Assembly: GCF_035609205.1 (NCBI RefSeq) | Contig: NZ_CP141184.1 | Location: 62,001-126,000, forward strand | DNA length: 64,000 nt | Origin: Hymenobacter sp. GOD-10R | GTDB taxonomy: Bacteria > Bacteroidota > Bacteroidia > Cytophagales > Hymenobacteraceae | Direction of reading: 5' to 3' | Shown: piece after piece, positions 2,120-50,738 of the stretch | Numbering within the stretch: the stretch's first letter is position 1 | How the letters are laid out: each line of letters opens with the position of its first letter | Position numbers and translations under genes: made by a program | The notes under the pieces: model-generated | What the model was told of the DNA's origin: nothing | Databases searched by the model: none | What the model saw: only the letters and a program-made list of their open reading frames with translations

Positions 2120-2244
2120 AAGCTCCCCTCCTTTTTTAAGGAGGGGTTGGGGGTGGTTCCTTGTCGTTGAACGACAGGCTAGGTCTAATCTTCTAGTTCT
2201 AGTCTGACCACCCCCAACCCCTCCTTAAAAAAGGAGGGGAGCTT
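2120..2244. repeat. Long inverted-repeat element, copy 1 of 5
   Basis: Two perfectly complementary 38-bp arms (2120-2157 and 2207-2244) flank a 49-bp spacer. Each arm contains an inner fold-back, CCCCTCCTT facing AAGGAGGGG. The spacer holds the 13-bp near-palindrome GTCGTTGAACGAC at 2163-2175. It lies between two convergent genes and could end transcription from both sides. Sister copies start at 17484, 26381, 28270 and 50615. Confidence 0.9.
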
Positions 2245-2264
2245 TTAGTTTTAACTAAAACTCT

Positions 2265-3482
2265 CTACTTATCCAACGACTGCAGCCACGGCAGGGCGTT
2301 CAGCATCATGGGCACAATGCTGGTGCGGTGGGTGCCACCCGGAATGGGGAAGAACGCTACATTGGTGGCGCCAGCGGCTTGGAAGCGGGCGTAAGTAGTG
2401 ACGGAAGTGCTGAAGAAAACGGACTCATCGTTGGTGCCGTGGTAGAGGCGCGTGGGGCTTCTGGGTACCCAGTTGTTGAAGCTGTTTTCGAGGAGCTTCT
2501 GCCGTAGCGCCGGTTCGCCGCTTGGGTTCTTTAGGTTGGCGTAGAAGGTGGGGTTAAACAAAGAAGCTAGGTTGGTGGTCAACTCGGCGTTGATTTGGTC
2601 GATGTTCTTGGTGCCATCGAGCAGCATGGGAATCTTGCCAGCGTAAGGTTGCTGAAAGAAATCAGTGAGTGGCCGGTTCCAGGTGTAGGTGGTGTTATAG
2701 GCCTGCAGGATAAACGCCAGAAACGACGGGCTAGCGTACGTCGGCACGGTGGCAACCTGGTTTAGGAACTCCGGCAGGTCATAGCCGCCCGCGCCTGCAG
2801 CGGCGGCCGTCAGCGTTAGTTGGTGACCGGGATGCGTCTCAATTTCCTGCTGGGCAGCCATCGTCACGTAGCCACCTTCCGAGTAGCCCGCCAAAAACAA
2901 GTTTTTATTGAGTGCTATACCGCCGCTTTTGAGAAAGTACTGGGCGGCCTTCAGCATGTTCACTACCGTCAGGGCGCTGGACTTCCGATCGAAGTACGGA
3001 TGAAAAATATTCCGGGAGGTGCCGTAGCCGATAAAATCGGGGATGACGGTAACGAACCCTGTCGAGGCGAAGAGCTCGAAGCCGCTAAAGGTAGCCGGGA
3101 AGTTCGAAGGGGCTTCCGCTTGTAGGAATGTGGTGCCGTGCTGGGCACTGAGCAGTGCTGGTGGGGCCGGCGTGCCTTGTGGAATGCCGAGTAACCCGGA
3201 GGCCTGCACGTTCTGCCCTTGGTAGTTCACTTTATACACCATGCGGTAAAACGTCACGTCGTACTTGGCGAAGGGCGCAAAGCTCTCAAAACCGGCCGCA
3301 GTTGCCAAACTCTTGAGGGTAGCCGCAGGCACCGTCCCAACCAGCTCAGCCGTCACGAACAAATCCTTTCCGCTTGGCTGCGGGTCCATGGGCACCGGAT
3401 CATCGTTCAAGTATTCGCAGCTGCTAAACACAGCTAGCCACAGCACGAGCAGCCACCGAAGGGAAGTGAGGTTTTTTTGCAT
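2265..3482 (-). CDS. Secreted lipase-like alpha/beta hydrolase (lipoprotein)
   Basis: 405 residues. A hydrophobic signal peptide ends in a lipobox with Cys22, so the protein is probably lipid-anchored in the envelope. The nucleophile elbow GYSEGG places the catalytic Ser at 201, and GGTHR near the C-terminus gives His385. Family resemblance is to secretory lipases and prolyl-oligopeptidase-like esterases, which hydrolyse ester substrates; the substrate cannot be told from sequence. It is transcribed alone, convergent with the DUF5686 gene, and ends at the copy-1 inverted-repeat element. Confidence 0.8.
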   Translation of the reverse strand: MQKNLTSLRWLLVLWLAVFSSCEYLNDDPVPMDPQPSGKDLFVTAELVGTVPAATLKSLATAAGFESFAPFAKYDVTFYRMVYKVNYQGQNVQASGLLGIPQGTPAPPALLSAQHGTTFLQAEAPSNFPATFSGFELFASTGFVTVIPDFIGYGTSRNIFHPYFDRKSSALTVVNMLKAAQYFLKSGGIALNKNLFLAGYSEGGYVTMAAQQEIETHPGHQLTLTAAAAGAGGYDLPEFLNQVATVPTYASPSFLAFILQAYNTTYTWNRPLTDFFQQPYAGKIPMLLDGTKNIDQINAELTTNLASLFNPTFYANLKNPSGEPALRQKLLENSFNNWVPRSPTRLYHGTNDESVFFSTSVTTYARFQAAGATNVAFFPIPGGTHRTSIVPMMLNALPWLQSLDK

Positions 3483-3725
3483 GGGTGTTAAGGAAGGTAT
3501 GGGTGTTCGATAGGTCTTGCGCTTGTAGGAAATTGAGAGCGAGTAGTTTACGTTTATTGTGGAACAAACCCAAGAAAAAGTTGAAAAATAGCTGGTCGTA
3601 GTAGCTTGTCAGGTCTGTACCCCGAGCAACCTTCCGGCGCGGCAGGCAGTAGACCCACGAAGAAGTTGCCCTGGGTAGCCTGTCATCGTGCCTGCCATTT
3701 TGGGTCAACCCAACTAGCCCCTCCT

Positions 3726-4331
3726 ATGAGCTTCTCGATTGAACAGATTCTGCGCGGGGATATTCCGCGCGTGGAGCACCGGCCGCCGTCTGCCGCGGAC
3801 CCTGGCTTAGTGCCCGTTAGCCTGCGCATCAATGGTCAAACCTATGACTTGCAGCTAGAGCCACGCGTAAGTCTGCTTGATGCCCTACGCGAGTTCATTG
3901 GCCTGACGGGCACCAAGAAAGGTTGTAACCAAGGCGCATGTGGTGCCTGCACGGTACTCATTGAAGACGAACGGGTTAACTCATGCCTGACCTTCGCCAT
4001 CATGCACGAGGGCCAGGAAATTACCACCATCGAAGGCCTAGGTACCCCAAACGAACTGCATCCGCTACAAGCCGCCTTCATCGAGCACGACGGCTTTCAG
4101 TGCGGCTACTGCACGCCAGGGCAAATCTGCTCGGCGGTGGCCATGTTGAAGGAGGTAGAACAGGGCGACGCCAGCGTCCTAACGCCCGACCTAGCCGCTA
4201 CCAAAGTAGAGCTGACCGATGAGGAACTGCGGGAACGAATGAGCGGCAACGTCTGTCGGTGCGGTGCCTACCTCGGTATTATCGATGCCATTCGCGACGT
4301 GTACGAGCAGCAAAAAGGGCCGCAAGCATGA
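3726..4331 (+). CDS. paoA: Aldehyde oxidoreductase, 2Fe-2S subunit (PaoA/YagT-like)
   Basis: 201 residues, small subunit of a xanthine-oxidase-family enzyme that passes electrons from the molybdenum site to FAD. Plant-type ferredoxin cysteines are C67, C72, C75 and C87. The second, helical 2Fe-2S domain has C126, C129, C177 and C179. I chose the ATG at 3726 because the preceding in-frame sequence lacks ferredoxin similarity. No obvious Tat signal precedes the ferredoxin domain, unlike E. coli PaoA, so location in cytoplasm or periplasm is open. The stop codon overlaps the start of the FAD subunit gene (ATGA), showing one operon. Confidence 0.9.
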   Translation: MSFSIEQILRGDIPRVEHRPPSAADPGLVPVSLRINGQTYDLQLEPRVSLLDALREFIGLTGTKKGCNQGACGACTVLIEDERVNSCLTFAIMHEGQEITTIEGLGTPNELHPLQAAFIEHDGFQCGYCTPGQICSAVAMLKEVEQGDASVLTPDLAATKVELTDEELRERMSGNVCRCGAYLGIIDAIRDVYEQQKGPQA

Positions 4332-5320
4332 GAGCATTTACCTACACCCGCGCCACGGATGAGCAAGCTGCGCTCAATGCCGTATTCCGGAACCCAGAAG
4401 CCAAGTTTATTGGTGGCGGTACCAACTTGGTGGATTTAATGCGCGAAGAAGTCGAGCGACCAAGTGAAGTAGTGGATATCAACGCGCTGCCCTTCAAACA
4501 GATCAATGAACTGCCCGATGGTAGCGTACGCCTTGGTGCCCTCGCGCGGAATAGCCACACGGCCAACCACCCCCTCCTTCGGCAGCGGTATCCGGTACTC
4601 ACGCAAGCTATGCTAAGTGCGGCCTCGCCGCAACTGCGCAACCTAGCTACCAACGCCGGCAACCTCTTGCAGCGCACCCGCTGCTACTACTTCTACGACA
4701 TCACGGCGCCCTGTAACAAGCGCCAGCCCGGCTCGGGTTGTGCGGCTATTCACGGCGTCAACCGCATTCACGCCATCCTCGGTACCAGCGAGCAGTGCAT
4801 TGCCACGCACCCTTCCGATATGGCTGTTGCATTGGCTGTTCTTGATGCAGTGGTGCAGGTACAAGGCTCCAACGGCGGACGTAGTATTCCGATTGAGAAA
4901 TTTCACCGTTTGCCCGGCGATACTCCCGAGCAGGATACCAACCTAGGGCACGACGAACTGATTACAAGCATTGATCTGCCAGCTTTGCCGTTTGCTACTA
5001 ACTCCCTCTACCTCAAAGTGCGCGACCGGCCTAGCTTCGCGTTTGCGCTGGTGTCGGTAGCGGTGGTGCTGGAGCTGGAGGATGATAAGATTAAGAACGT
5101 GCGCTTGGCCCTGGGTGGTGTGGCGCACAAACCCTGGCGGGCGCATACGGCCGAACAGGCGCTACTAGGTGCATCCGCTACGGCCGAGAACTTCCGGCAA
5201 GCTGCGGAAGCGGAGCTGCAAACCGCCATTGCCTACGAGCATAATGCCTTCAAAATCGAGCTAGCCAAGCGCACCATCGTGCGGGCTTTAACTACGCTCG
5301 CCGAACGCAACCTAGCCTAA
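4328..5320 (+). CDS. paoB: Aldehyde oxidoreductase, FAD subunit (PaoB/YagS-like)
   Basis: 330 residues. FAD-binding motif IGGGTNLVD lies near residue 28 and ATNAGNLLQ near 107, as in CO-dehydrogenase flavoprotein subunits. A cysteine-bearing insert with C119, C129, C138 and C157 matches the extra 4Fe-4S site known in PaoB, which separates this type from classical xanthine dehydrogenases. Start ATG overlaps the upstream stop by 4 bp and the Moco subunit begins 4 bp after its stop. The expected role is electron transfer from 2Fe-2S centres to the final acceptor. Confidence 0.9.
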   Translation: MRAFTYTRATDEQAALNAVFRNPEAKFIGGGTNLVDLMREEVERPSEVVDINALPFKQINELPDGSVRLGALARNSHTANHPLLRQRYPVLTQAMLSAASPQLRNLATNAGNLLQRTRCYYFYDITAPCNKRQPGSGCAAIHGVNRIHAILGTSEQCIATHPSDMAVALAVLDAVVQVQGSNGGRSIPIEKFHRLPGDTPEQDTNLGHDELITSIDLPALPFATNSLYLKVRDRPSFAFALVSVAVVLELEDDKIKNVRLALGGVAHKPWRAHTAEQALLGASATAENFRQAAEAELQTAIAYEHNAFKIELAKRTIVRALTTLAERNLA

Positions 5321-5324
5321 GCCG

Positions 5325-7568
5325 ATGAGAACGAAAGAAGTAGGCCGTCCCCTCGACCGCGTTGACGGACGCCTGAAAGTAACCGGCCAAGCACGCTACA
5401 CGGCGGAGTTTCCCGTCGAGCAGGTAGCGTATGGGGTTCTTGTGCGCAGCACCATTGCCCGCGGCCGCATTTTGGCTTACGCTACCAAGGCAGCGGAGCA
5501 AGCCCGCGGCGTGTTGGCGGTGATAACGCACGAAAACGCCCCTAAGCGCCACCCGACCAAAGAGTTTGACCCCAGCGACAAAGAGCCCAGCGCATCGCCC
5601 ACTACCATCCTCGCCCTTAATACCGATGAAGTAAGCTGGCACGGGCAACCTATCGTGGTCGTCGTGGCCGAAACGCTCGACCAAGCCGAGTACGCAGCTG
5701 ACTTGGTGCGCATCACCTACGCACCGGCCGAAGAGCCAGCTAGGTTGTCGATGCTGGACGAGAAATCGGAGGCGTTTGTGCCCAAGAAGGTGCTAAACGA
5801 AAAGCCAGAAGTAAAGCAGGGCAATGCCGAAGAAGCCTTGGCTGCCGCGCCGGTCAAAATTGACCACACCTATACCACGCCGCCCTACAACCACAACCCC
5901 ATCGAGGCGCACAATACCCTAGCTTACTGGGAAGAGGAAGACCGGCTGACGGTCTATGATTCAACGCAATATATCTTCGGCGTGCGCAAAATGCTTTCGG
6001 AAATGTTTGCGCTGCCGGAAGAAAATATACGGGTCATTTCGGCCTTTGTGGGTGGGGCTTTTGGCAGTAAAGGTCGGGCTTGGCCGCACGTTGGCCTGAC
6101 GGTAATGGCCGCCAAAGTGGTAGGTCGCCCGGTGAAAGTCGACTTGCCGCGTAAGGACATGTTCTACATGGTAGGCGGCCGCACGCCCAGCGAGCAACGC
6201 GTAGCCCTAGGTGCCAATGCGGAAGGCAAGCTGCAAGCCGTTATCCATACCGGCCTCACGGCTAGCTCTACCAGCAACACCTTCGCCGAGCACTTTTCCT
6301 TTGTCACGCGTCACCTCTATGCTAGCCCCAACTTCCTGATTCAGCAGAAGTTAGTGCGGCTCGATATGGTGCCGAATACCTTCATGCGGGCACCCGGCGA
6401 AGGTATCGGCACGTTCGCGCTGGAGTCGGCCATGGACGAGCTAGCCTACGCCCTGAACATAGATCCGATAGAGCTGCGCCTGCGCAACGAGCCCGAAAAA
6501 GACCCTACCATGCACGTGCCCTTTTCGAGCCGACACTTGAAAGAGTGCTTTGCGCTCGGGGCGGAGAAGTTTGGCTGGCACTCGCGCAACCCGCAGCCGC
6601 GTAGCCAGCGCGAAGGTCCGTGGCTTATCGGCCAAGGCACCGCAAGTGCTTTTTACCCGGCTAATAAGCGGAGCGCTGAGGTCAAAGTCCATCTTTCTAT
6701 TGATGGCACAGCGGTGTTGCAAAGTGCCACCCACGAAATGGGCACCGGTACCGCCACCGTGCAAGCCCAGAACGCTGCTGACCAGCTAGGCCTATCCGTC
6801 GAAAAGGTGCGTTTTGAGTACGGCGACTCGCTATTGCCGAAGGCCAACGGCAGCTACGGTTCCACCACCACCATTACGGTGGGCGGGGCCGTGGAACTAG
6901 CCTGCGAAGACTTAAAGCGCCAGTTGTTGCGCCTAGCCGTGAAGCACCCTAGCTCGCCTCTGCACGAAGCCAGCTACGACGACCTCGAAGCCCGCGACAA
7001 CGGCTTGTTCTACAAAGATAATCCTGCCCAAGGCGAAACCTACGCGACTATCATGGCCCGTGAAGGCAAAGCCGGCCTCGAAGCGCAAGCTAGCTTCCCG
7101 CCCTTTCTGAAGGAAAAGCTAGAAGAAATGGCGTATTCCTTCCAGTCATTTGGGGCGCAATTCTGCGAGGTGCGCGTGCACGAGGATACCGGCGAGGTGC
7201 TGGTGTCGCGCTGGGTGGGCGTATACGACTGCGGCACCATCCTAAACGAGAAAACCGCCCGCTCGCAGTTCCTCGGCTCCGTGACCATGGGCATCGGGAT
7301 GGCGCTGTGGGAAGCCACCCAGTGGGACCTGCGCGACGGTCGCATCCCGAATGCTAGCTTGAGCGAATACCACGTACCCGTTGCCGCGGGCCTGCCGCGC
7401 ATCGAAGTTCACTCCCTGGGCATACCGGACCCGCATACACCCCTAGGTGCGCACGGCGCCGGCGAAATTGCCGTGACGGGCGCGGCCGCCGCTATTGCCA
7501 ACGCCGTGTACCACGCCACTGGCAAGCGCATCCGTAATTTGCCGATCACGCCGGATAAGCTGCTGTAA
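5325..7568 (+). CDS. paoC: Aldehyde oxidoreductase, molybdopterin subunit (PaoC/YagR-like)
   Basis: 747 residues, the catalytic subunit that oxidises aldehydes to acids. The N-terminal Ald_Xan_dh_C hammerhead domain (about 15-130) is followed by the molybdopterin-binding domain with VGGAFGSKG, MRAPGEG and GSYGSTTT motifs. The C-terminal GAHGAGEIAVTG holds the catalytic Glu (about E714). Length agrees with PaoC (about 730). It is the last gene of paoABC. No XdhC/PaoD-type chaperone, needed to load sulfurated MCD cofactor in E. coli, follows here; a hairpin at 7584-7646 and a convergent AraC gene close the operon. Confidence 0.92.
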   Translation: MRTKEVGRPLDRVDGRLKVTGQARYTAEFPVEQVAYGVLVRSTIARGRILAYATKAAEQARGVLAVITHENAPKRHPTKEFDPSDKEPSASPTTILALNTDEVSWHGQPIVVVVAETLDQAEYAADLVRITYAPAEEPARLSMLDEKSEAFVPKKVLNEKPEVKQGNAEEALAAAPVKIDHTYTTPPYNHNPIEAHNTLAYWEEEDRLTVYDSTQYIFGVRKMLSEMFALPEENIRVISAFVGGAFGSKGRAWPHVGLTVMAAKVVGRPVKVDLPRKDMFYMVGGRTPSEQRVALGANAEGKLQAVIHTGLTASSTSNTFAEHFSFVTRHLYASPNFLIQQKLVRLDMVPNTFMRAPGEGIGTFALESAMDELAYALNIDPIELRLRNEPEKDPTMHVPFSSRHLKECFALGAEKFGWHSRNPQPRSQREGPWLIGQGTASAFYPANKRSAEVKVHLSIDGTAVLQSATHEMGTGTATVQAQNAADQLGLSVEKVRFEYGDSLLPKANGSYGSTTTITVGGAVELACEDLKRQLLRLAVKHPSSPLHEASYDDLEARDNGLFYKDNPAQGETYATIMAREGKAGLEAQASFPPFLKEKLEEMAYSFQSFGAQFCEVRVHEDTGEVLVSRWVGVYDCGTILNEKTARSQFLGSVTMGIGMALWEATQWDLRDGRIPNASLSEYHVPVAAGLPRIEVHSLGIPDPHTPLGAHGAGEIAVTGAAAAIANAVYHATGKRIRNLPITPDKLL

Positions 7569-7583
7569 AACAAGGTTTTTCAT

Positions 7584-7646
7584 AGCATACTACACGGCTG
7601 CCAGTTAGACGTCGTAGGGGTTTAAACGGCAGGCGTGTAGTATGCT
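7584..7646. terminator. Bidirectional hairpin between paoC and araC-type gene
   Basis: Arms 7584-7602 and 7628-7646 pair over 19 bp with at most one or two mismatches around a 25-nt loop. It sits between two convergent genes; the right arm reaches the stop codon of the AraC gene. No strong T-run, so the terminator role is inferred from position. Confidence 0.55.
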
Positions 7647-8575: not shown

Positions 8576-8581
8576 AGTCTA

Positions 8582-10559: not shown

Positions 10560-10722
10560 CTTGTGGCTATTGTAAGGTAATAGGGGTTGACTTTTTACCT
10601 TACAAAGGTCTGGCAACAACCTAGGCTGGGACTTATACAAACCGTCGCTTCTGCAACACAAAACGCCGTTACTGAGCCGGGAAAAAAGTAAAAAGGAACG
10701 TGGCTTTACTATTCTAAATGTG

Positions 10723-10826
10723 AACGTCATGCTGAGCTTGTCGAAGCATCTCGCGTGCAATGGTAAACCCTGAGGATTAGAGTTACTACTGCACGCGAGA
10801 TGCTTCGACAAGCTCAGCATGACGTT
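10723..10826. repeat. 37-bp perfect inverted repeat (TCATGCTGAGCTTGTCGAAG type)
   Basis: Left arm 10723-10759 and right arm 10790-10826 are exact reverse complements around a 30-nt loop, between two aldo/keto reductase genes on the minus strand. The arm sequence is a dispersed palindromic repeat that I recall from many bacterial genomes, where its translation gives spurious MLSLSKHL-type peptides. It occupies most of the ~300-bp gene-free stretch 10560-10858; the rest shows nothing clear. Confidence 0.85.
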
Positions 10827-10858
10827 CTACTTTGGACGTATTGGTGAGTTTACCAGGA

Positions 10859-17483: not shown

Positions 17484-17606
17484 AAGCTCCCCTCCTTAAA
17501 AAAGGAGGGGTTAGGGGTGGTTCCTCTCGTCGAACGAAAAGCTAGCTCTAGTTATCTAACTCTAGTTTGACCACCCCAACCCCTCCTTAAAAAAGGAGGG
17601 GAGCTT
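17484..17606. repeat. Long inverted-repeat element, copy 2 of 5
   Basis: Arms 17484-17521 and 17570-17606 flank a spacer with CGTCGAACGAA. Pairing also extends outward (GCTAGGATGAAG against CTTCATCCTAGC), making this the longest copy. The inner A/T tract is turned round in the left arm: it reads CCTTAAAAAAGG, where the other copies have CCTTTTTTAAGG, so the two arms are not exact complements in the centre. Located between an SDR gene and the GH63-like gene, both on the minus strand. Confidence 0.88.
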
Positions 17607-26380: not shown

Positions 26381-26506
26381 AAGCTCCCCTCCTTTTTTAA
26401 GGAGGGGTTGGGGGGTGGTCCGGCTAGAGCTAGAAAACTAGACCTAGTCCGTCGTTCAACGACAAGGGACCACCCCCAACCCCTCCTTAAAAAAGGAGGG
26501 GAGCTT
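26381..26506. repeat. Long inverted-repeat element, copy 3 of 5
   Basis: Arms 26381-26419 (one extra G in the G-run) and 26469-26506. The spacer is in the opposite orientation to copy 1 and contains GTCGTTCAACGAC at 26451-26463. Fills most of the gap between the convergent GDSL esterase and phosphorylase genes. Confidence 0.9.
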
Positions 26507-28269: not shown

Positions 28270-28390
28270 AAGCTCCCCTCCTTTTTTAAGGAGGGGTTGG
28301 GGGTGGTTCTGGTGTTAGAACGAAAAGCTAGCTCTAGTTTTCTAACTCTAGCTAACCACCCCCAACCCCTCCTTAAAAAAGGAGGGGAGT
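28270..28390. repeat. Long inverted-repeat element, copy 4 of 5
   Basis: Left arm 28270-28307; right arm 28355-28390, slightly degenerate at its outer end (GGGGAGTTGC). The spacer carries GTTAGAACGAAAAGCTAGCTCTAG. It dominates the gene-free stretch 28177-28499 between phosphorylase and the DUF2383 gene, both minus-strand; a terminator at 28448-28481 takes up much of the rest. Confidence 0.88.
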
Positions 28391-39263: not shown

Positions 39264-42200
39264 CTATGGGTGTACCAGCGTAATGCTCTGTAAGCGTGTG
39301 TTTTGACGTAACGTCAAGAGGTATAGCCCAGAATGTAGGAAGGAGACTTCCGGTAAGGTGAACGTGGTAGCGCCTCGCATTAAAGTAAGTGTACGGTACA
39401 CAATTACCCGGCCTAGGACGTCCGTGAGCTGCAAAATGGCCGGACCAGGTTGCTCAACGTCCAGGCGTACCGTAAGCTGGTTCTGAAAGGGATTGGGATA
39501 TGCTTGTAATTGCAGGCCTGTTGATTGAGAGAGACTTACTGGTAAAGGAGTAGCAGAGTTGGTACTCTGACCGAGCTGCTGAGCATCTACATAAATCCAG
39601 GGACCATAGCGGGGTAAGGCGCCCGTACCTCCTGTGCCTGCTAGGAGCATTGTCGATGCGAGTGAGGAAGCCGAACTGTATTCTAGCCGGGCGCGTACGC
39701 GTGTAGTACGCCCGGCCTTCGGAATGAGACTTTTCAACTCTGTGGGGTTGCTTGCGAGTAAGTCCGTCCAGGCTCCGCGCCCAGAGTAAGCAGTGGAATT
39801 CGTGGTGGAAGCTCCGGTTGAGAAAGGAATGCCATTGCCTACGGCCTCCCATACCAAGCGAGCCTCTACGCGCCCAAAGGCTGAGCGCGCTACAAGCCCT
39901 AGGCCTACTTGCGGCTCCTTAACATTGGTCTGCGCTAATGGAGTAATGAGGTCAGTATTGTAAAAGCGTAACCTGCCAAGCCGGCTTCCGCCTTCGTTGC
40001 CGAGGTACAGATAGGCTTTGCCTTGCTGCGCACGTGTCCCAACGTTGGTACTCCACGCGCCCACCAGCACATCCGCGTAGCCGTCGCCGTTCACGTCACC
40101 GGTACCAGTTACGCTAAAGCCAAAAAAATCGGTACTACCCCCTGTTTGTCCTGTCACAAATGTGTTTGGTGTAGAGCTTAGGCCTGCGCCAGAACCTAGG
40201 AACAGGTAAGCCCGGCCGCCAGCGCCTCCGACCGGTAGATAGGCTCCTACAAAAATGTCGGAGTATCCGTCGCCGTTTATGTCGCCGGCTCCTGCTACAC
40301 TTTGGCCAAAGAAGCCGGGGGCACTGCCACCAGGATTGTTGAGCGTTGAACTCGGAGTTGCGCTAGGCCCTATACGGCGCCCTAAGTACAAGTAGGCACG
40401 ACCATTGCCGCCGATAGCCTTGCTGGCACCGATGACAATATCGGCGTACCCATCGCCATTTACATCGCCGGCCCCAGCTACGCTACACCCAAACGAATCA
40501 TATGAAGTTGTAGGATCCGGGAATGATACACTTGGAGTAGTAGCAAGACCTGTGCTGCCTCCTAGGTACAAATAAGCCCGGCCTTGAAGATTGCTGGCGC
40601 CAGGGGCTCCAATAATGACATCGGCGTACCCATCGCCGTTCACGTCGCCCGCACTGGCCAAGCTACTGCCAAACACATCGTTGGTGGTCGCTGTCGGATC
40701 AAAGAGGGAGATGCTGGGCGTTGTCGGCAGCCCGGTGCTACTACCTAGGTACAAATAAGCTCGACCCTGACCAGTGGAGTTACCATCGGCACTGATCAGC
40801 ACATCGGCGTAGCCGTCGCCATTCACATCGCCCGCGCTGGCCACGCACTTCGCAAAATTATCACTGATCACGGCCAACGGGTCACGAAGGGCAAGTGTGG
40901 GTTGTGTGCTCACCCCGGTGCTAGTGCCCAGGTAGAGGTAAGCGCGGCCCTCACCGCTGGAGGCACCAGGCGCACTCACAACGATATCGGCGTAGCCATC
41001 GCCGTTTATGTCGCCCATGCCGGCTAGGCCGTAGCCAAATTGGTCATTGTTCGTTGATGTTGGATCAGGCAGCGTAATAGCTGCAGTGGTACCTAGGCCC
41101 GTGCGGCCACCCAGGTAGAGGTAAGCTCGCCCCTGCGAGCCAGCAGTTCGGAACGCCCCAATAAGCATATCGGCGTAGCCGTCGCCGTTTACGTCGCCGG
41201 CGCCGGCCACCGTATACCCAAAGGAGGCGGCCTCTGACGCCGTAAGCGACTCACTGGCACTCGTTAATACCGTGGCGGTGCTACCTAGGTAGAGGTGGGC
41301 ACTGCCATTGCTGTTGTTACTCCCCCAAGCCCCGATAAGAACATCGGCGTAGCCGTCGCCATTTACGTCGCCGGCGCCGGCCGCACTGAAGCCAAACTGG
41401 TCATAGTGTGCAGCCGTTGGATCATTGAGGGTTGTGCTTGGCACTGTGCTCACGCCCGCCGCGCTACCTAGGTACACGTAGGTGCGCCCCTGTAAATCGT
41501 TGGTACCAGGAGCTCCGATGAGCACGTCGGCATACCCATCGCCATTCACGTCGCCCGCACTGGCCACACATTGGCCAAAGTTCTTGTCTTCCGTAGCGGG
41601 GTTGGTCATGAGGGTGCTAGGTGTGGCGCTTAGGCCAGTGCTGCTGCCCAAGTACACGTAAGCACGGCCGCGCAAATCATCGGGGCGGTAGGTGCCTACA
41701 ACTACGTCGGCGTAGCCATCCCCATTCACGTCGCCGGCCCCGGCTGCACTAAAACCAAACTGATCACCGCTGGTAGCAGGGCTGCTGAGCGTACTGCTGA
41801 GCGCTGCGCTAAGGCCAGTGCTGCTACCTAGGTACAGGAAAGCAGCCCCTCGACCATCATAGTCGGGAGCACCAATGACTGCATCAGCGTACCCGTCCCC
41901 GTTTACATCACCCGCGGCGGCTACACTCCGACCAAAGCTGCCAGTGTTCGTCAATATCGATTGGGAAGTTGCGCTGACGCCCGTGCTGCTACCTAGGTAG
42001 AGGTAAGCGCGTCCTTGGCCTGTGTTGCCATCAGCGCCGATGAGTATATCGCCGTAGCCATCACCGTTCACATCGCCAATGCCAGCTACGCTACGCCCAA
42101 AAAGACTATTGGGAATCGCCGGATTGAACGTGGTGCTAGGAATAGCGCTCAAGCCCGTGCTGCTACCCAGATACAAGTACGCACTGCCTTGGTCCGCGTT

Positions 42201-43373
42201 AGTTCCCCACGCGCCCACCAGTACATCGGCGTAGCCGTCGCCGTTCACGTCGCCGGCACCCGCCACACTGAATCCAAATAGGCTGTACAGCGCCGCGGCG
42301 GGGTCTTGGAGCGTAGCAACAGGGGTTTTACTTAACCCATTGCTGCTGCCTAAAAATAAATAAGCACGTCCCTGGCTATTGCTGCCCGGAACGCCGACAA
42401 TGGCATCGGCGTACCCGTCGCCATTTACGTCACCGGCACCGGCTACACTGTAGCCGAACTGTCCACTGTAGTTTGGCGCCGGGTCGGTAAGCGTAGCGCT
42501 AGGTGTGCTGGCAAGCGGATCGATGGTGATGGGATACGTGGCATGCGCATCGTCTACTTCCAACGTCAATGCCTGGGTGTTATTCTGCCAAGCTAGGTGG
42601 GCCGGCAGTACACGCCCCGTGGCGTCCCAGGCCTGCAAGCCGGAATAACGGAGTACCGTTGAGTCGGTGTTGGTGGCGAAAGTAAGCGTTGTGCTGTCTT
42701 CTTTCTGTACGTGCAACTGCGTTTCAAGCCGTAGCAGTACTTGTAGCGGACCGGTTGAGCCTGGGCGTTGGGCTACTTGATAGTTTTGTCGCACGCCCGC
42801 CGGGGAGTTTACGTAATCGACCGCAAAAGCGGCTCCGTGGGCGTAGTGAATAGTGGTGTCGGTGGCGGTAGCAGAAGCAGTAGCCTGTGGATGAATGCTA
42901 ACCTGCCCGCGTCGACCAAGACCGCGCAGGATAAAGCGCACGTTCCAGGCTGGTGGCGTAGCCTGGTCCTCCTGGTGGAGCTGATTGGAAGGCGATGGAT
43001 GAGGTAAAAAGCTAGCAGCCGCTAGGGTGTAAGTGGCAGCTCCTAAGTGAGCCGTTAGGTGCTGGGCAGCGTTGGCCGCCAGGTGCGTAGTAGATTTTTC
43101 AGCTACTGGACTGAGAAAGTAGGAACGGCGCTGAATATCGGCTAAAGCGCCCGTTAGGCCCGCCGCAGAAGTGTCGACCGGCAAAAGAACTGGCCTATGG
43201 GGAGGCGTTTTGAACCGTAGTGAAGCTGAAAACCTAGGAATAGCTACTGTTCGTGGACTAACCGACGCAGTATGTACAGCCGCAATGGGGCTCTTAGCTA
43301 CAAAACTAGCAATGAGTACTAACGTGCTCAACACGCTTATTCCGCCCACGCGGAGGATAGTAGAAAAGTGCAT
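39264..43373 (-). CDS. Giant secreted FG-GAP repeat protein with T9SS sorting domain
   Basis: 1369 residues from the ATG at 43373. Signal peptide, then an N-terminal region of about 280 residues. Next comes an array of 14 FG-GAP / integrin-alpha-like repeats (DNA 40040-42480), each with GDVNGDGYAD or a close variant; DxNxDGxxD binds calcium. After it a non-repeat domain (about 1130-1280) and a C-terminal YPNPF...LTLVHP-type T9SS type A sorting domain. Fourteen repeats of 60-66 residues fit two seven-bladed propellers. Cell-surface or secreted adhesion or carbohydrate-binding role is inferred. Confidence 0.9.
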   Translation of the reverse strand: MHFSTILRVGGISVLSTLVLIASFVAKSPIAAVHTASVSPRTVAIPRFSASLRFKTPPHRPVLLPVDTSAAGLTGALADIQRRSYFLSPVAEKSTTHLAANAAQHLTAHLGAATYTLAAASFLPHPSPSNQLHQEDQATPPAWNVRFILRGLGRRGQVSIHPQATASATATDTTIHYAHGAAFAVDYVNSPAGVRQNYQVAQRPGSTGPLQVLLRLETQLHVQKEDSTTLTFATNTDSTVLRYSGLQAWDATGRVLPAHLAWQNNTQALTLEVDDAHATYPITIDPLASTPSATLTDPAPNYSGQFGYSVAGAGDVNGDGYADAIVGVPGSNSQGRAYLFLGSSNGLSKTPVATLQDPAAALYSLFGFSVAGAGDVNGDGYADVLVGAWGTNADQGSAYLYLGSSTGLSAIPSTTFNPAIPNSLFGRSVAGIGDVNGDGYGDILIGADGNTGQGRAYLYLGSSTGVSATSQSILTNTGSFGRSVAAAGDVNGDGYADAVIGAPDYDGRGAAFLYLGSSTGLSAALSSTLSSPATSGDQFGFSAAGAGDVNGDGYADVVVGTYRPDDLRGRAYVYLGSSTGLSATPSTLMTNPATEDKNFGQCVASAGDVNGDGYADVLIGAPGTNDLQGRTYVYLGSAAGVSTVPSTTLNDPTAAHYDQFGFSAAGAGDVNGDGYADVLIGAWGSNNSNGSAHLYLGSTATVLTSASESLTASEAASFGYTVAGAGDVNGDGYADMLIGAFRTAGSQGRAYLYLGGRTGLGTTAAITLPDPTSTNNDQFGYGLAGMGDINGDGYADIVVSAPGASSGEGRAYLYLGTSTGVSTQPTLALRDPLAVISDNFAKCVASAGDVNGDGYADVLISADGNSTGQGRAYLYLGSSTGLPTTPSISLFDPTATTNDVFGSSLASAGDVNGDGYADVIIGAPGASNLQGRAYLYLGGSTGLATTPSVSFPDPTTSYDSFGCSVAGAGDVNGDGYADIVIGASKAIGGNGRAYLYLGRRIGPSATPSSTLNNPGGSAPGFFGQSVAGAGDINGDGYSDIFVGAYLPVGGAGGRAYLFLGSGAGLSSTPNTFVTGQTGGSTDFFGFSVTGTGDVNGDGYADVLVGAWSTNVGTRAQQGKAYLYLGNEGGSRLGRLRFYNTDLITPLAQTNVKEPQVGLGLVARSAFGRVEARLVWEAVGNGIPFSTGASTTNSTAYSGRGAWTDLLASNPTELKSLIPKAGRTTRVRARLEYSSASSLASTMLLAGTGGTGALPRYGPWIYVDAQQLGQSTNSATPLPVSLSQSTGLQLQAYPNPFQNQLTVRLDVEQPGPAILQLTDVLGRVIVYRTLTLMRGATTFTLPEVSFLHSGLYLLTLRQNTRLQSITLVHP
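40040..42480 (-). repeat. Tandem ~190-bp coding repeats (14 FG-GAP units)
   Basis: The calcium-loop coding segment (GTCGCCGTTCACGTCGCC-like on the + strand) recurs at about 180-200-bp steps fourteen times. Nucleotide identity is strongest around the loop and weaker elsewhere, so the repeats are old but recombination between them is possible. It is also a likely place for assembly errors. Confidence 0.88.
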
Positions 43374-43430
43374 GCAATCGAATCTATAAACTATAATATA
43401 GTGGTATAAAATTAACAAATCGATCAGCAC

Positions 43431-43480: not shown

Positions 43481-43505
43481 TACAGCTCGTAGGTTGTTCG
43501 TTGAC

Positions 43506-45150: not shown

Positions 45151-45191
45151 CAACGATGGATAGTATAAAAGAGTTATACGGTTCAGCTTAT

Positions 45192-46907: not shown

Positions 46908-47107
46908 GCGCGAAGTTGAAAAGGTGAGGAAATGCGTGGCTACCAAAATAAGCTACGCAATCCGATTTCGGTCATCTTCTGCGCTAGGGCTTGCACAAAA
47001 AGAAGCCACGTACAAGAATCGGGCTTTTGCTTATTGGCTGAGCAGTGTTCGTCACTCTGCGGCTGTACTACGCGTAAATGCTTCATTCCCAACATGCAAT
47101 TTTGACG

Positions 47108-47569
47108 ATGGAAAAGAAGACAACCGGGGAGCCAAAGAAAACGACGGCTAAGCCCAAGGCCAAACCCGAAGACACCTACACCGACCCCACCCTGCGCGAG
47201 CGGCTGAAAGAAGAAATCAAAGCCGGCGACAAAGGCGGCGATGCTGGGCAGTGGAGCGCCCGGAAGTCGCAACTGCTCGCCAGCGAATACAAGAAGGCGG
47301 GTGGAGGCTACAAGAGTAAGAAGCCCACAGAAGAGCAGAAAGACTTGAACCAGTGGACGAAGGAAGACTGGCAAACGGCCGATGGCAAACCAGCCAAGCG
47401 CGCCGGCGGCACCACACGCTACTTGCCCAAGGAAGCCTGGGAAGAGCTGACGCCTGCCGAGAAGAAGGCCACCAACGCAAAAAAGCAAGCGGCCTCGAAG
47501 GAAGGAAAGCCGAAAGAAGAGAACACGAAAGCAGCTAAAACGGCCCGCAAGAAAGCTACGAAAAGCTAG
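47108..47569 (+). CDS. DUF5872 domain protein, lysine-rich
   Basis: 153 residues, very rich in Lys, Ala and Glu. The centre matches DUF5872: ARKSQLLASEYKKAGGGY, then WTKEDWQTADGK, RYLPKEAWEELTPAEKKAT. Basic ends suggest nucleic-acid binding, but function is unknown. The family is shared with large DNA viruses. CAATTTTG sits 4 bp before the start, a near match to the -7 box. A long hairpin follows immediately after the stop. Confidence 0.75.
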   Translation: MEKKTTGEPKKTTAKPKAKPEDTYTDPTLRERLKEEIKAGDKGGDAGQWSARKSQLLASEYKKAGGGYKSKKPTEEQKDLNQWTKEDWQTADGKPAKRAGGTTRYLPKEAWEELTPAEKKATNAKKQAASKEGKPKEENTKAAKTARKKATKS

Positions 47570-47603
47570 GCGTAGCGCGAACTTGGTAGTTCGCGCTACG
47601 CCT
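47568..47603. terminator. 16-bp perfect hairpin (GTAGCGCGAA family)
   Basis: AGGCGTAGCGCGAACT and its exact complement around the tetraloop TGGT, beginning inside the stop codon of the DUF5872 gene. It has no T-run, but its position and strength fit an end-of-gene signal for both convergent genes. GTAGCGCGAA ends are shared with the repeats at 52079 and 59153. Confidence 0.7.
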
Positions 47604-47629
47604 AACGGTACCTTAGGTCCAAAATGCTT

Positions 47630-48886
47630 TTAGCCAGCGAGGATCATTTCGGCCACTTCGCGTCCGGTAGCAATAGCTGCGTTTAGTGAAGGGTATGCCG
47701 CCCAATCGCCGCAGCGGTAAAGGTTGTCGTCTAGCTTTAGAGGCTGGTACGCGGGCTGCCCGGCCGAGTAGACGGGCAGGGCGCGGTCGATTTTGTACGT
47801 ACGGAGGTGTTGCCACGTTCCGACTTCCGGGCCAAACCAGGTAGTAAGCTGCGGCTGCAATTGGCCTAGCAACTCCTCCTCACTTAAGCCATGCGGCCCC
47901 TGCGTGCTCACGGAAATAAGCGTCCGCCCGGCCGGGGCATAATCGGGCGCTACGTCGCTGATGAAAGCCACGTTGTGAGCCACCCCATCGGGCACTGAGT
48001 TGAGGCGTAAGAGCCGGTCGCCGTGCCCCGGCGAGCGGTCGGCGGCGAAGTACGTGCAAGTCGTTTGGCGCCATTCGGTGGCTGGTGTGCCGGCTAGTTG
48101 GGGTAGAAAGGTGCGGGCAGCATCACCATCGGTAGCGACCACCACGGTCGCCGCCGTCAGGATTTCGCCATTGCGCAAGCGGACCTGCGCGCCGTGTACC
48201 GCCTCTACGGGCGTGTTCAGGCGCACCGTGCCAGCGGGCAGACGAGCCGCTAGTTGCTCCGGAATTTGCTGGATGCCAAGCGCTGGTACCGCCGCCTCAC
48301 CCGCTATAAATTGTTGAAAGACAAACTCAAAGAAGTTGCTGGCCGTGCTCAGGTTGCGGTCGAGGTAGATGCCCCCGAAAAACGGACGAAAGAAAGTGTC
48401 GATGATGTAAGGACTCCAGCCATAATTGCGCAAGCACGAAAGTGTATCGGTGCTAGAGCGGGCCAGGAGTTCCTCGCTCGTGTACTGGCTGACTTGGCGG
48501 GCTAGCTTGGCAATCAGTAACTTATCGGTGAGGCTGCCCACCGGTGATGTCAAGGCTGAAAGGGCAGCTATTGGCTGTTGGAGGGGGTTCAGGAGCGTCG
48601 TTTCGCGGCCATCGGGCAAGCGCGTGATGGCACCCGAGCGAAACGCCTTTAGGTTCAGCGCCCCGTAGTCAATCAGGCGCTGCACCTCCGGGTAGCGCGT
48701 GAGCAGAATCTGAAATCCCCGATCAAGGCGGAAGCCTTCGGGTGTTACGTCGGTGCGCACGCGGCCACCCACGGCGTCCGCTGCTTCCAGCACTAGTACT
48801 TTCTGACCCGCACGATGCAAGTAGTTAGCGCAAGCCAGGCCCGCCATGCCTGCCCCAATAATGATGATAGGATCAGAGGAATTCAT
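47630..48886 (-). CDS. FAD-dependent oxidoreductase (amine-oxidase/protoporphyrinogen-oxidase-like)
   Basis: 418 residues from the ATG at 48886. Rossmann FAD motif IIIIGAGMAGLACANYL at 7-23, then VLEAADAVGGRVRTD, and C-terminal LYRCGDWAAYPSLNAAIATGR, all typical of the NAD(P)-binding_8 / amino-oxidase family that includes plant-type carotenoid and porphyrin enzymes. Substrate not known. The frame is open for 56 more codons upstream, overlapping the preceding gene, but these lack similarity. Confidence 0.83.
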   Translation of the reverse strand: MNSSDPIIIIGAGMAGLACANYLHRAGQKVLVLEAADAVGGRVRTDVTPEGFRLDRGFQILLTRYPEVQRLIDYGALNLKAFRSGAITRLPDGRETTLLNPLQQPIAALSALTSPVGSLTDKLLIAKLARQVSQYTSEELLARSSTDTLSCLRNYGWSPYIIDTFFRPFFGGIYLDRNLSTASNFFEFVFQQFIAGEAAVPALGIQQIPEQLAARLPAGTVRLNTPVEAVHGAQVRLRNGEILTAATVVVATDGDAARTFLPQLAGTPATEWRQTTCTYFAADRSPGHGDRLLRLNSVPDGVAHNVAFISDVAPDYAPAGRTLISVSTQGPHGLSEEELLGQLQPQLTTWFGPEVGTWQHLRTYKIDRALPVYSAGQPAYQPLKLDDNLYRCGDWAAYPSLNAAIATGREVAEMILAG

Positions 48887-48977
48887 AAACAAAGAGCAAT
48901 AGGAGGAAGTGAGAGGGGAGAGCGTCAAGTGTACAACAGCTATAAGTCGGTACTGTTGAGACTCGGTTGCGTTCCGC

Positions 48978-49766
48978 TCACTTCGGCGTTTCTGTGGGTG
49001 GGCAAGGTGGACCAATCTTGAACGTTTCGGCGGTGCTGTAGTCCTCCCAGTCATTCAAGGAGATACGCGACTGATCCATATAATACTCACCAGATGCTAG
49101 GGTTATTCCATTGCGAAAATGTCCTTTCGAATATTTTTCACTAGCTACCAAGTTTTTGTTACCCGTCAGATACTCTAGCCGCCAGCGGCCATCGGGGATG
49201 CCGTTGAATACAGCACCACCCCAACGCATTTCATCCTCGTCGCGGTACCAAGTGCCATTACCGTTGCGCACGAGCTGTTTGCCGGTTGCGTCCCAGAATT
49301 GTTGCACTGTAGGTTCGCCACCGGCTCCGAAGCTGAGCACCTGTCGTGGCTTACCCGACGGATACCAGTAGGCCCAGTCGCCTACCTGACGGCCCTCGTG
49401 GTAGTGCCCCCGAGCAGCTAGCTCCCCGGTGCGGTGGTACAGCTCAAATACGCCTTCCTTCTTGCCGTTGCGAAAAGCGCCGCTCAGCGCCAGCATGTTG
49501 TTGTGCATCCAATAGTCGCGCACGAAGCCCTTGAACACACGCGTACTATCGAAGCGCACGTGGCGGCGAATGGCGGCGCAGCCCGCTGGAGCAAGGAGGT
49601 AACGATCTGAATAAAAGAAGGCTACGCTATCCTTGCCAGCTATGCGGTAGCAGTCGCGAATATTGGCGGTAACTGGAGGCGTAAATGTGCGTTGTTGCCC
49701 CCAAGCTGGTCCTGCCCAACTGATGGCAATCAAACTAAGTAAGATTAAACAATAGCGCATAAACAT
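48978..49766 (-). CDS. Exported MORN-variant repeat protein (YwqK-like)
   Basis: 262 residues, signal peptide cleaved near GPAWGQQ. Repeats of the form ...G.F.NGKKEGVFELYHRTGELAARGHY...G..VGDWAYWYPSGKPRQ correspond to the MORN_2 variant (about 4-5 copies between residues 95 and 225). Such proteins are plentiful in Bacteroidota envelopes; function unknown. It ends 91 bp before the FAD oxidoreductase start on the same strand. Confidence 0.75.
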   Translation of the reverse strand: MFMRYCLILLSLIAISWAGPAWGQQRTFTPPVTANIRDCYRIAGKDSVAFFYSDRYLLAPAGCAAIRRHVRFDSTRVFKGFVRDYWMHNNMLALSGAFRNGKKEGVFELYHRTGELAARGHYHEGRQVGDWAYWYPSGKPRQVLSFGAGGEPTVQQFWDATGKQLVRNGNGTWYRDEDEMRWGGAVFNGIPDGRWRLEYLTGNKNLVASEKYSKGHFRNGITLASGEYYMDQSRISLNDWEDYSTAETFKIGPPCPPTETPK

Positions 49767-49849
49767 GGTAAGAAGCTAGGTGCTGGTAGCTAAGTAGCTA
49801 TACGGAAACGACGAAGCAAAAGAAGCAGAAGCCTGCCCAAGCGTAAAAA

Positions 49850-50527
49850 TCAAAACAGCTTGGGCCTAGGCTTCATGACTTTGCGCGTTTTCATGGTGTA
49901 AAACTCAGCTACGCCGGGCCGGGCTAGCTCTACTTGCCACACTCCCATCACTTGCCCGCGGCGGTAGCCAGTGGCTTGGTCGCGGGGGTAATTCTTCTTG
50001 ATCAGCGCATAGTCAGCCGCCGTGATGTCGCCGCCCACCGAGCCGTGGCAGCGTAAGCACAGTGCATCGTCGAGCACAATGGGACGCTGATAGGTGAACA
50101 CCTCTGCGCTAGGCCGCGCCACCAGCCGGGCGGTATCCGATTGAAGCTGAGCGGCTGGCAAGCTAGCTAGGTGCTCCGGGGTGCGTGGCCGGCTGCTCAC
50201 ACGGCGCGCCTTGGCTTTCAGGATTCGCGCCATCGAATCCGTGGAAGCGTAGCTTTCCGGGCGGCAGTAGGGAAGGGCTGCCGCCACACCGCCCTCAGCA
50301 AGCTTTGCTTTCAACAGGCGGTGCAACTCTCGGTCGGCCGTACGAGTGAGTGAGTCGCCCGCCCAGCGTGCTGCGTGTAGTAAGTCGGCAGGCATAATTC
50401 GCTTAACCTCCCAGTTGGCGGCTTCCACGGCAATCTTCTTCGTATCGCGCAGGTGTTGAATCTGGTCGGACGAACAAGCGGCAAGACTGAGCAGCAGAAT
50501 GGCAGTAGCGGGAAGAAGCAGGCGCAT
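49850..50527 (-). CDS. DUF3365 (Tll0287-like) haem lipoprotein
   Basis: 225 residues. Lipobox LAAC with Cys18. The single c-type haem site CLRCH has Cys157, Cys160 and His161. The surrounding FTYQRPIVLDDALC and GYRRGQVMGVWQVEL match the Tll0287-like domain, a PAS-related sensor fold found in secreted haem proteins and histidine kinases. Here there is no kinase part, so a periplasmic haem protein in electron transfer or sensing is inferred. Confidence 0.8.
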   Translation of the reverse strand: MRLLLPATAILLLSLAACSSDQIQHLRDTKKIAVEAANWEVKRIMPADLLHAARWAGDSLTRTADRELHRLLKAKLAEGGVAAALPYCRPESYASTDSMARILKAKARRVSSRPRTPEHLASLPAAQLQSDTARLVARPSAEVFTYQRPIVLDDALCLRCHGSVGGDITAADYALIKKNYPRDQATGYRRGQVMGVWQVELARPGVAEFYTMKTRKVMKPRPKLF

Positions 50528-50614
50528 AAGAAGAGGGCAATATGTACTAGAAACCTCGTTCTAAGGCAATAAGTTGAAAATGTAGACAGTGTTTAGAAGC
50601 TAACCCAAAAAGCT

Positions 50615-50738
50615 AGCTCCCCTCCTTTTTTAAGGAGGGGCTGGGGGTGGTCAGACTAGAACTAGAAAACTAGATTTACCTAGTCGTTCAACGACAAGGG
50701 ACCACCCCCAACCCCTCCTTAAAAAAGGAGGGGAGCTT
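50615..50738. repeat. Long inverted-repeat element, copy 5 of 5
   Basis: Arms 50615-50651 and 50701-50738 differ by one base (GGGGCTGGGG for GGGGTTGGGG). The spacer, oriented as in copy 3, contains GTCGTTCAACGAC at 50683-50695 and ACTAGAACTAG. Located between the start of the haem-lipoprotein gene and the end of thrC, all on the minus strand, so it is the last element downstream of the thr operon. Confidence 0.9.

What the first reader, a model, noticed from the sequence alone, without database searches (positions are those of the whole stretch)
2120..50738. Five copies of a ~125-bp element with 38-bp inverted arms
Copies at 2120, 17484, 26381, 28270 and 50615 share near-identical arms (each with an inner CCCCTCC...GGAGGGG fold-back) and related spacers in both orientations. 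None interrupts a gene, and none lies in a divergent promoter region: two are between convergent genes and three between tandem genes. About one per 13 kb implies a large genome-wide family. They may be non-autonomous MITE/REP-like elements spread by a transposase encoded elsewhere, or a dedicated gene-end structure.
Basis: partly seen in the sequence, partly recalled or inferred. Interest (0 to 1): 0.72.

Follow-up and report, generated by a model that had tools for sequence, protein, structure and literature searches.

The report
Triplex-armed repeats with a nuclease partner
Five short palindromes in this Hymenobacter genome belong to a known but unexplained class of triple-helix-forming DNA repeats, and longer relatives carry a small nuclease gene (DUF559) between the same arms, which suggests that the repeats are stripped-down mobile elements with their own enzyme.

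Summary
The host is a Hymenobacter; the genome holds 49 places of the element, 47 with two inverted arms, none inside a called ORF (2 of 49 between divergent ORFs). Each arm is a C/T-loop-A/G hairpin, a short spacer and a mirror copy of the purine strand (A or T opposite A, G opposite G). That is the known intrastrand-triplex motif (PIT/BoxC/TM), whose origin Holder et al. 2015 left open. New here: in other Hymenobacter genomes the same arms stand 300-550 bp apart and, in 8 of 9 loci, enclose a DUF559 (PF04480, Vsr-like) nuclease gene. Of 91 Hymenobacter DUF559 loci, 74 have such hairpins on both sides, 16 on one. The arrangement recurs in Bacteroidota and in some Proteobacteria, Cyanobacteria and Deinococcus; E. 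coli ycjD has two motifs downstream (by eye). Arm type tracks nuclease clade (Mantel r 0.73; 0 of 2000 permutations). Sites differ between species and between E. coli strains. Best reading: the window's copies are non-autonomous, REPIN-like doublets of a nuclease-linked element. Cleavage and copying by DUF559 are inferred, not shown; a guest nuclease is the main rival. Small GIY-YIG genes show a parallel pairing with another palindrome family of this window.

The parts
2120..2244 (.). Element 1 (core with both arms), between a + ORF ending 2081 and a - ORF ending 2265 (convergent)
2120..2157 (+). Element 1 left arm: AGCT + hairpin CCCCTCC-TTTTTTAA-GGAGGGG + TTG + third strand GGGGTGGT
   Evidence: I9; hairpin
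2207..2244 (-). Element 1 right arm, inverted copy, 100% complementary
   Evidence: I9
17484..17606 (.). Element 2, tandem ORFs; left arm 17484-17521 (loop half inverted: TTAAAAAA on both sides), right arm 17570-17606; outer complementarity continues (AGCTAGGATG / CATCCTAGCT)
   Evidence: (I8)
26381..26506 (.). Element 3, opposite orientation, between convergent ORFs; left arm 26381-26419, right arm 26469-26506
   Evidence: site comparison (site A)
28270..28389 (.). Element 4, tandem ORFs; left arm 28270-28307, right arm 28354-28389; absent at the corresponding site of G013 and G019
   Evidence: (site B)
50615..50738 (.). Element 5, opposite orientation, tandem ORFs; left arm 50615-50652, right arm 50700-50738

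Best explanation
The five copies are non-autonomous doublets of a mobile palindromic element. Each arm is an intrastrand-triplex motif: on one DNA strand it can fold to a hairpin whose mirror-image G-rich tail lies back in the groove as a third strand. The autonomous form has the same arms around a single small gene, a DUF559 nuclease (PD-(D/E)XK, Vsr-like); in this genome the nearest relative of that gene (62% identical to the G002 protein, 128 aa, C1:4445737-4446123) starts about 50 bp from a copy of the element. Proposed working: when a strand is exposed (replication, cruciform at gene ends), the arm folds; the cognate DUF559 enzyme recognises that fold and cuts at its base; the cut element is copied or released and is installed by repair at other palindrome-bearing gene ends, sometimes replacing another palindrome. 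Shown here: anatomy, triplex sequence rule, gene between arms, arm/enzyme covariation, differences at the same site between species and strains. Partly shown: dispersal that goes with the gene. Inferred: that the triplex forms in this host, that DUF559 binds or cuts it, and the copying step.
For: Arms 300-550 bp apart in 9 loci of 7 other genomes; 8 of the 9 hold a DUF559 gene (all 8 places are also hits of the family or protein search; Pfam 115 and 104 bits for the two submitted); in the ninth (L125) none was found. 90 of 91 Hymenobacter DUF559 loci have an arm-type hairpin within 300 bp, 74 on both sides. Density 5 per kb within 200 bp of DUF559, 0-0.5 per kb further out in the genus. Fake genes in the window: 0 of 1248 with an exact inverted repeat of 15 or more across them; 0 of 2516 with hairpins on both sides, 157 with one side, from the five elements themselves. 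Third-strand rule met by 195 of 202, 63 of 70 and 18 of 25 hairpins beside DUF559 (genus, phylum, other phyla) against 7.7, 3.3, 1.5 expected from shuffles; in those that pass, the base opposite A is A or T in 570 of 578, opposite G it is G in 1895 of 1940. Arm sequence tracks protein: Mantel r 0.73, 0 of 2000; 6 label changes on the tree against at least 26 in 200 shuffles. Genomes with a close clade-A gene: 25 of 28 have 5 or more arms, against 13 of 92 (see against for the threshold). In 16 of 29 Bacteroidota loci the domain lies in a long ORF; Pfam confirms LeuS and MetH as hosts for the two submitted. Same-site differences.
Against: No cleavage, binding or transposition was shown. A PD-(D/E)XK nuclease alone has no strand-transfer chemistry known to me. 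The clade-A threshold (154 bits or more) was set after seeing the scores; the clear gap in the scores lies lower (132.9 to 95.8 bits), and with that cut 25 of 53 against 13 of 67 genomes have 5 or more arms (Fisher 0.0015); the 25 genomes with genes of 132-153 bits have at most 2 such arms. The counts include the gene's own arms; after subtracting 3, 18 of 28 keep 5 or more. 8 genomes without any such gene have 8-32 arms, one of them (G026, 20 arms) without any DUF559 hit: the enzyme was lost there or is not needed. The genome's own related gene has arms on one side only. No target duplication and no clean empty site with exact ends was found; flanks of the nearest relatives are 82-93% identical. 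Physical linkage alone would give the arm/protein covariation. In 14 loci of other phyla only 5 have hairpins on both sides and 3 have none; 5 of 29 phylum loci have none. My hairpin rule finds nothing at E. coli ycjD, whose motifs have imperfect stems and were read by eye.
Confidence: 0.58

Rival explanations
1. DUF559 is a guest, not the motor: a homing-type nuclease that has invaded pre-existing triplex palindromes (as homing endonucleases invade introns) and rides with them, while the repeats spread by some other route (replication template switching, recombination, RAYT or another transposase).
For: Most copies lack the gene (49 places and 2 DUF559 genes in this genome, one with another arm type); 8 genomes have many arms and no gene of that clade. 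DUF559 sits in frame inside LeuS, MetH and other host ORFs, as a homing nuclease might. Holder et al. found no mobility genes near E. coli motifs.
Against: Arm type tracks enzyme clade closely, and dispersed copies are commoner in genomes with a close relative of the gene (threshold set afterwards). The arms, not only the gene, are seen at in-frame insertions, where they appear to be translated (read by eye).
Confidence: 0.25
2. Gene-end structure kept in place: a bidirectional terminator or mRNA 3'-end stabiliser; not mobile, or mobility irrelevant.
For: 0 of 49 inside ORFs, 11 convergent against 2 divergent (window gaps 5 and 6); very stable fold; same slot filled by unrelated palindromes in relatives.
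Against: Arms, spacer and outer flanks are shared by scattered copies in both orientations; element 4 is absent at the corresponding site of G013 and G019; the gene inside longer copies is unexplained. 61 of 120 Hymenobacter genomes have no such arm.
Confidence: 0.09
3. REPIN/BIME moved by a RAYT (HUH) transposase, or a MITE of a DDE transposase not found here.
For: Doublet architecture is REPIN-like; one Y1_Tnp gene exists in the genome. No genome-wide search for DDE families was made.
Against: No YR hairpin in the 3.2-kb RAYT locus; no GTAG foot on the arms; the gene found between the arms is DUF559.
Confidence: 0.06

Closest known systems
Intrastrand triplex motifs: PIT elements / BoxC / TM (Holder et al. 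2015, PMC4666352: abstract, section 18 and passages read; Hoyne and Maher 2000, 2002: recalled, and cited there)
   Same: Hairpin with a pyrimidine and a purine arm, 3-nt second loop (TTA and CCG types in E. coli; TTG, CTA, TTA, CCG among others here), purine third strand; intergenic; some as inverted pairs; scattered over many genomes; rearranged loci.
   Different: Holder reports no mobility gene near the motif and leaves the origin open. Here a DUF559 gene is found between or next to the arms; arm type covaries with the enzyme; doublets extend into CTAG-rich outer repeats. The words Hymenobacter, Bacteroidetes, endonuclease, DUF and ycjD have 0 occurrences in its main text.
REP / BIME / REPIN with RAYT (TnpA-REP): PMC8266576 (passages read), PMC3733652 (abstract and one passage read)
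   Same: Short extragenic palindromes, many as inverted doublets, thought non-autonomous, partner enzyme encoded in the same genome, RAYT genes flanked by palindromes.
   Different: Candidate partner is a PD-(D/E)XK nuclease, not an HUH tyrosine enzyme; no GTAG; arm carries a mirror-repeat third strand.
DUF559 / Vsr-like endonucleases: E. coli YcjD, Caulobacter VsrA (PMC12907096, passages read), PDB 3hrl
   Same: Same domain; VsrA is needed for the DNA damage response of Caulobacter lacking a methylase.
   Different: No repeat association in the passages seen (12 of 18 places shown); here the gene is a component of a repeat element.
MITEs (defining features recalled)
   Same: Small, inverted termini, many copies.
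   Different: The parent found with these ends carries no transposase family; no target duplication resolved.

Membership tests
Intrastrand triplex motif (PIT/BoxC/TM, purine class) | Pyrimidine stem, loop, purine stem, short second loop, mirror purine third strand with G on G-C and A/T on A-T | tested here: met
   Hairpins beside DUF559: 195 of 202 in the genus. Element 1 left arm read directly: AAGGAGGGG, TTG, GGGGTGGTT; reversed it fits 9 of 9. Not scored by script for the 49 elements of this genome
Intrastrand triplex motif (PIT/BoxC/TM, purine class) | Triplex actually forms | not testable with these tools
   Shown in vitro for the E. coli motif by CD and NMR; in vivo only minor or temporary (PMC4666352)
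Intrastrand triplex motif (PIT/BoxC/TM, purine class) | Intergenic, multi-copy | tested here: met
   0 of 49 inside an ORF; 83 arms in G000
REP/REPIN with RAYT | Two palindromic units in inverted orientation | tested here: met
   47 of 49 places have both arms
REP/REPIN with RAYT | GTAG (or CGTC) tetranucleotide at the foot of the hairpin | tested here: not met
   In the five window copies the foot is AGCT (once AGTT) outside and TTG, CTG or TTA plus a G run inside
REP/REPIN with RAYT | RAYT gene associated with the repeats | tested here: not met
   Single Y1_Tnp match at C1:1935563-1935799; no YR hairpin in its 3.2-kb locus; an element lies about 5 kb away
MITE | Terminal inverted repeats | tested here: met
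   38-nt arms, 100% in element 1
MITE | Target-site duplication | tested here: inconclusive
   Flanks are themselves inverted, CTAG-rich and copy-specific; relatives too diverged for exact ends
MITE | Autonomous parent with a transposase between the same ends | tested here: not met
   Gene found between the same ends is DUF559, in 8 of 9 long elements fetched
DUF559 family (for the partner gene) | PF04480 above curated cut-off; conserved D and E-x-D-G-x-x-H core | tested here: met
   115.1 and 103.9 bits against cut-off 20.6; core residues conserved in 95% or more of 87 aligned proteins; own copy is an open 128-aa ORF with the core. That these are the catalytic residues is recalled
Intrinsic terminator | Stable GC hairpin followed by a T run, active in termination | not tested
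   Terminator scan not run; hairpin is followed by a G-rich tail on the inner side; no transcript data

The most novel reading that the evidence does not exclude
DUF559 is the dedicated enzyme of the intrastrand-triplex repeats: a single PD-(D/E)XK nuclease that reads a DNA triple helix as its mark and so spreads a repeat class found in several bacterial phyla, E. coli BoxC included. More generally, unrelated small nucleases each own a palindrome family: DUF559 with triplex arms, GIY-YIG with the GTCATGCTGAGC...CGAAGCATCTC palindromes (inverted repeats across 23 of 28 loci, triplex hairpins at 0 of 28), RAYT with GTAG repeats.
Probability: 0.4. Interest if true: 0.93.

Novelty: new variant of a known kind. 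Interest (0 to 1): 0.85.

Why it matters
Intrastrand-triplex repeats are known from E. coli and many other bacteria, and the 2015 survey states that their origin is open and that no mobility function was found near them. Naming a candidate enzyme, with matching arm and enzyme lineages, makes the question testable in E. coli K-12 (ycjD and its motifs). If right, it gives a role to a widespread domain of unknown function, points to a nuclease that may read triplex DNA, and suggests that REP-like repeats have several independent enzyme partners.

Tried and rejected
RAYT as partner: one Y1_Tnp gene, no arms beside it. Rfam: no family reached its gathering score in the window or in nine long-element loci. 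tRNA/tmRNA: none there. Defence system: no PADLOC match for one element DUF559 protein. Target duplications: not resolvable. Counting E. coli genomes with the motif at ypfG/tktB with an 82-bp query: inconclusive, because other copies of the motif match the query. ycjD as a clean empty-site case: not clean; strains without ycjD carry an efflux operon there (the same replacement is described in PMC12817139, passages read, which names eefRABCD and infers at least two independent losses).

Third-strand count on one strand side only looked weak, because the third strand lies on either side of a hairpin; the two-sided count replaced it. The strict exact-repeat test finds few inverted repeats in the wider phylum (15 or longer in 4 of 29 loci); the hairpin test and reading by eye were then used.

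Literature searches, all in the held library: DUF559 (14 papers; listing seen, passages of one read), PF04480 (1), Hymenobacter + MITE + inverted repeat (0), REP-associated tyrosine transposase + Bacteroidetes (3), potential intrastrand triplex (6), intrastrand triplex with E. coli or intergenic (10 listed of 13,472), ycjD or BoxC (15 listed of 164), REPIN + endonuclease + non-autonomous (3), GIY-YIG + palindromic + intergenic repeat (1, on organellar introns), endonuclease domain-containing protein + inverted repeats + mobile (0). Nothing that I saw in listings, abstracts or passages links DUF559 with these repeats; no preprints and few subscription journals are held, so this is not proof of absence.
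Full report
1. Observation. The five copies exist as described. Core of element 1: AAGCT-CCCCTCC-TTTTTTAA-GGAGGGG-TTG-GGGGTGGT, 45-50 nt of spacer in the window copies, then the inverted copy. The genome (7.5 Mb, 7 contigs; the window is C1:62001-126000) has 43 forward and 40 reverse arms at up to 3 mismatches and none for the backward control. These fall into 49 places, all taken; 47 have two inverted arms, two (L071, L074) have one. The exact 33-base arm was found in five stretches of three named species, all Hymenobacter (H. telluris, H. daecheongensis, H. crusticola; records of the window's own genome may be left out there). Five copies in 64 kb against 0.46 expected makes the window a cluster, noted after the fact.

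2. Real extent. CTAG occurs at 51 per kb in the 30 bp outside the arms and at 3.5-7.4 beyond (window mean 5.6), so those bases look like part of the element. Left and right outer flanks of a copy agree at 10.7 of 20 positions, those of different copies at 7.5 (0 of 5000 permutations; 47 of 49 elements). The two halves of one copy therefore change together. Several copies carry a mini-hairpin (GCCCGAAGGGC type) in one arm in place of the short second loop (by eye).

3. Longer relatives with a gene. Among 120 Hymenobacter genomes 59 have at least one arm. In seven I saw arms 300-550 bp apart in the listing, which shows only the first places of each genome. Nine such loci were fetched, with one ordinary doublet (L126). 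In seven my ORF script picked the DUF559 frame; for L124 it picked an antisense frame, and the family search placed DUF559 there (G021:C14:41700-42017); in L125 no DUF559 was found. In four (L117, L118, L119, L121) a third arm follows, i.e. arm-gene-doublet. In several ORFs the arm itself encodes the last residues and the stop (...TTPSPSSSEEGN). Two proteins give PF04480 DUF559 at 115 and 104 bits; the one solved relative found is 3hrl, called an endonuclease-like protein.

4. How general. PF04480 hits 103 of 120 Hymenobacter genomes and 222 of 392 drawn from the phylum. I examined 91 Hymenobacter loci: the 31 returned as loci plus 60 chosen from the list as free-standing ORFs, by rank and ORF length, not by flanks; lower-ranked and contig-edge hits were left out. 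Hairpins with a pyrimidine and a purine arm (stem 7 or more, 5 or more G/C) lie within 300 bp on both sides in 74, one side in 16, neither in 1. For 29 top-scoring loci of the phylum search: 21 both, 3 one, 5 none; for 14 loci of Proteobacteria, Cyanobacteria and Deinococcus, picked by me for spread from the 42 records: 5, 6, 3. Density falls from 5 per kb within 200 bp to 0-0.5 per kb further out in the genus; in the phylum set it is still 2.5 per kb at 200-300 bp. In the window itself the only such hairpins are the ten arms of the five elements; of 2516 fake genes 0 have one on both sides and 157 on one. The own genome's second DUF559 gene (L127) lies between 41-bp perfect inverted arms of another sequence type, GCGCCTCACCCCCCGG-CCCCCTCTCC-GAAAA-GGAGAGGGGG; that hairpin occurs at 13 places in the genome, two of them at L127 and eight as four pairs 73-116 bp apart.

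5. Triplex rule. In most arms the purine strand of the hairpin is followed, usually after 3 nt (228 of 276), by its own mirror image with A replaced by A or T: 195 of 202 (genus), 63 of 70 (phylum), 18 of 25 (other phyla) at 85% or more, against 7.7, 3.3 and 1.5 in shuffled tails; on both sides in only 0, 1 and 1. The base opposite A is A or T in 570 of 578 cells, opposite G it is G in 1895 of 1940 (these cells come only from arms that already pass 85%). This is the sequence rule of an antiparallel purine-motif triplex (established knowledge). It identifies the arms as the intrastrand-triplex motif of Holder et al. 2015 (PMC4666352; abstract, section 18 and passages read), earlier called PIT and BoxC (Hoyne and Maher, recalled and cited there). 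That paper describes inverted pairs in five cases, second loops TTA and CCG, intergenic position, stable triplex in vitro, rearranged loci, and says that the origin is unclear and that no activities providing mobility were found near the motifs.

6. Arm and enzyme go together. 88 of 91 loci gave a scorable arm; on 87 proteins without stops arm distance and protein distance correlate (Mantel r 0.73, 0 of 2000 permutations, best permutation 0.19). Four stem classes (my own classes) need 6 changes on the protein tree against 26 or more in 200 shuffles. Linkage explains this at least in part. A test in trans: genomes with a close clade-A gene (154 bits or more to the G002 protein) have 5 or more type-A arms in 25 of 28, the others in 13 of 92 (Fisher 3e-13); 18 of 28 still do after removing 3 arms for the gene's own flanks. 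This threshold was set after seeing the scores. At the clear gap in the scores (132.9 to 95.8 bits) the counts are 25 of 53 against 13 of 67 (Fisher 0.0015). Also against: 8 genomes with no such gene have 8-32 arms, and the 25 genomes with genes of 132-153 bits have at most 2.

7. Mobility. In 16 of 29 phylum loci the DUF559 domain lies in an open frame of 879-1402 aa. Pfam confirms LeuS (domain just before the editing domain) and MetH (between the two B12 domains) for the two submitted; HsdR-like, UvrC-like and methyltransferase hosts are my reading. Arms appear to be translated there (SPLPLGEDLGEG and the like, by eye). Site B (element 4): G013 and G019 lack the element at the corresponding site; flanks 82-89% identical. 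Site A (element 3): G021 and G112 have a type-A element at the slot, G013 an unrelated palindrome of the family seen in this window at 59153-59262, G019 another inverted repeat. E. coli: between ypfG and tktB, strains KE48 and MLI106K3 carry the triplex motif where MG1655, AR_0058, 19SZHZ869Rt and 2018-01-1CC carry REP-like sequence (recognised by me), flanks otherwise near-identical (6 strains read, of 5375 genomes with a match). E. coli ycjD, annotated DUF559, has one degenerate and one intact motif downstream, read by eye; my hairpin rule missed both. The ycjD region is present in 3334 of 5426 genomes at 80% coverage.

8. Parallel case. The window's palindrome at 10713-10836 belongs, by eye, to a GTCATGCTGAGC...CGAAGCATCTC family. 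A 106-aa GIY-YIG gene of this genome lies between 34-bp perfect inverted repeats of that kind, and 23 of 28 small GIY-YIG loci of the genus have inverted repeats of 14-58 bp across the gene, most with this motif by eye; 0 of the 28 has a triplex hairpin within 300 bp; two long GIY-YIG ORFs have no such repeat; fake genes 1 of 1254 (30 top-ranked loci plus L283, 3 edge loci skipped).

9. Judgement. Element identity and the DUF559 association are well supported; that DUF559 drives spread is the best reading but rests on association. The main rival is that the nuclease is a homing-type guest of the repeats. Triplex formation in Hymenobacter, cleavage and copying are untested.

Noticed in passing
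window 10713-10836: Second palindrome family, 54-nt arms (GTCATGCTGAGCTTGTCGAAGCATCTCGC), 16 nt apart; in this genus such arms flank small GIY-YIG nuclease genes (inverted repeats at 23 of 28 loci).
   Followed up: partly
window 59153-59262 and 52080-52174: Third palindrome family (GCGCGAAGCTCCNGCTTCG); G013 has a member in the slot where the window has element 3. Partner gene unknown.
   Followed up: no
L127 (G000 C1:6400335-6403655): DUF559 gene between 41-bp perfect inverted triplex arms of the GGAGAGGGGG type; 13 places of that hairpin in the genome.
   Followed up: yes
L162, L165, L180, L185 (LeuS) and L168, L170, L176, L178, L186 (MetH): DUF559 in frame inside host enzymes, apparently at about the same site in several genera (by eye; Pfam for L165 and L178); homing or old inheritance not separated.
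   Followed up: partly
window 40043-42494 (within ORF 39264-43430, - strand): Long protein with about 13 repeats of roughly 180 bp; FG-GAP-like is my guess.
   Followed up: no
L275 2087-2690 (E. coli MG1655 sapF-ycjD-fabI): ycjD with two triplex motifs stands where other strains have the eef efflux operon; PMC12817139 infers at least two independent losses of eef with ycjD in its place (passages).
   Followed up: partly
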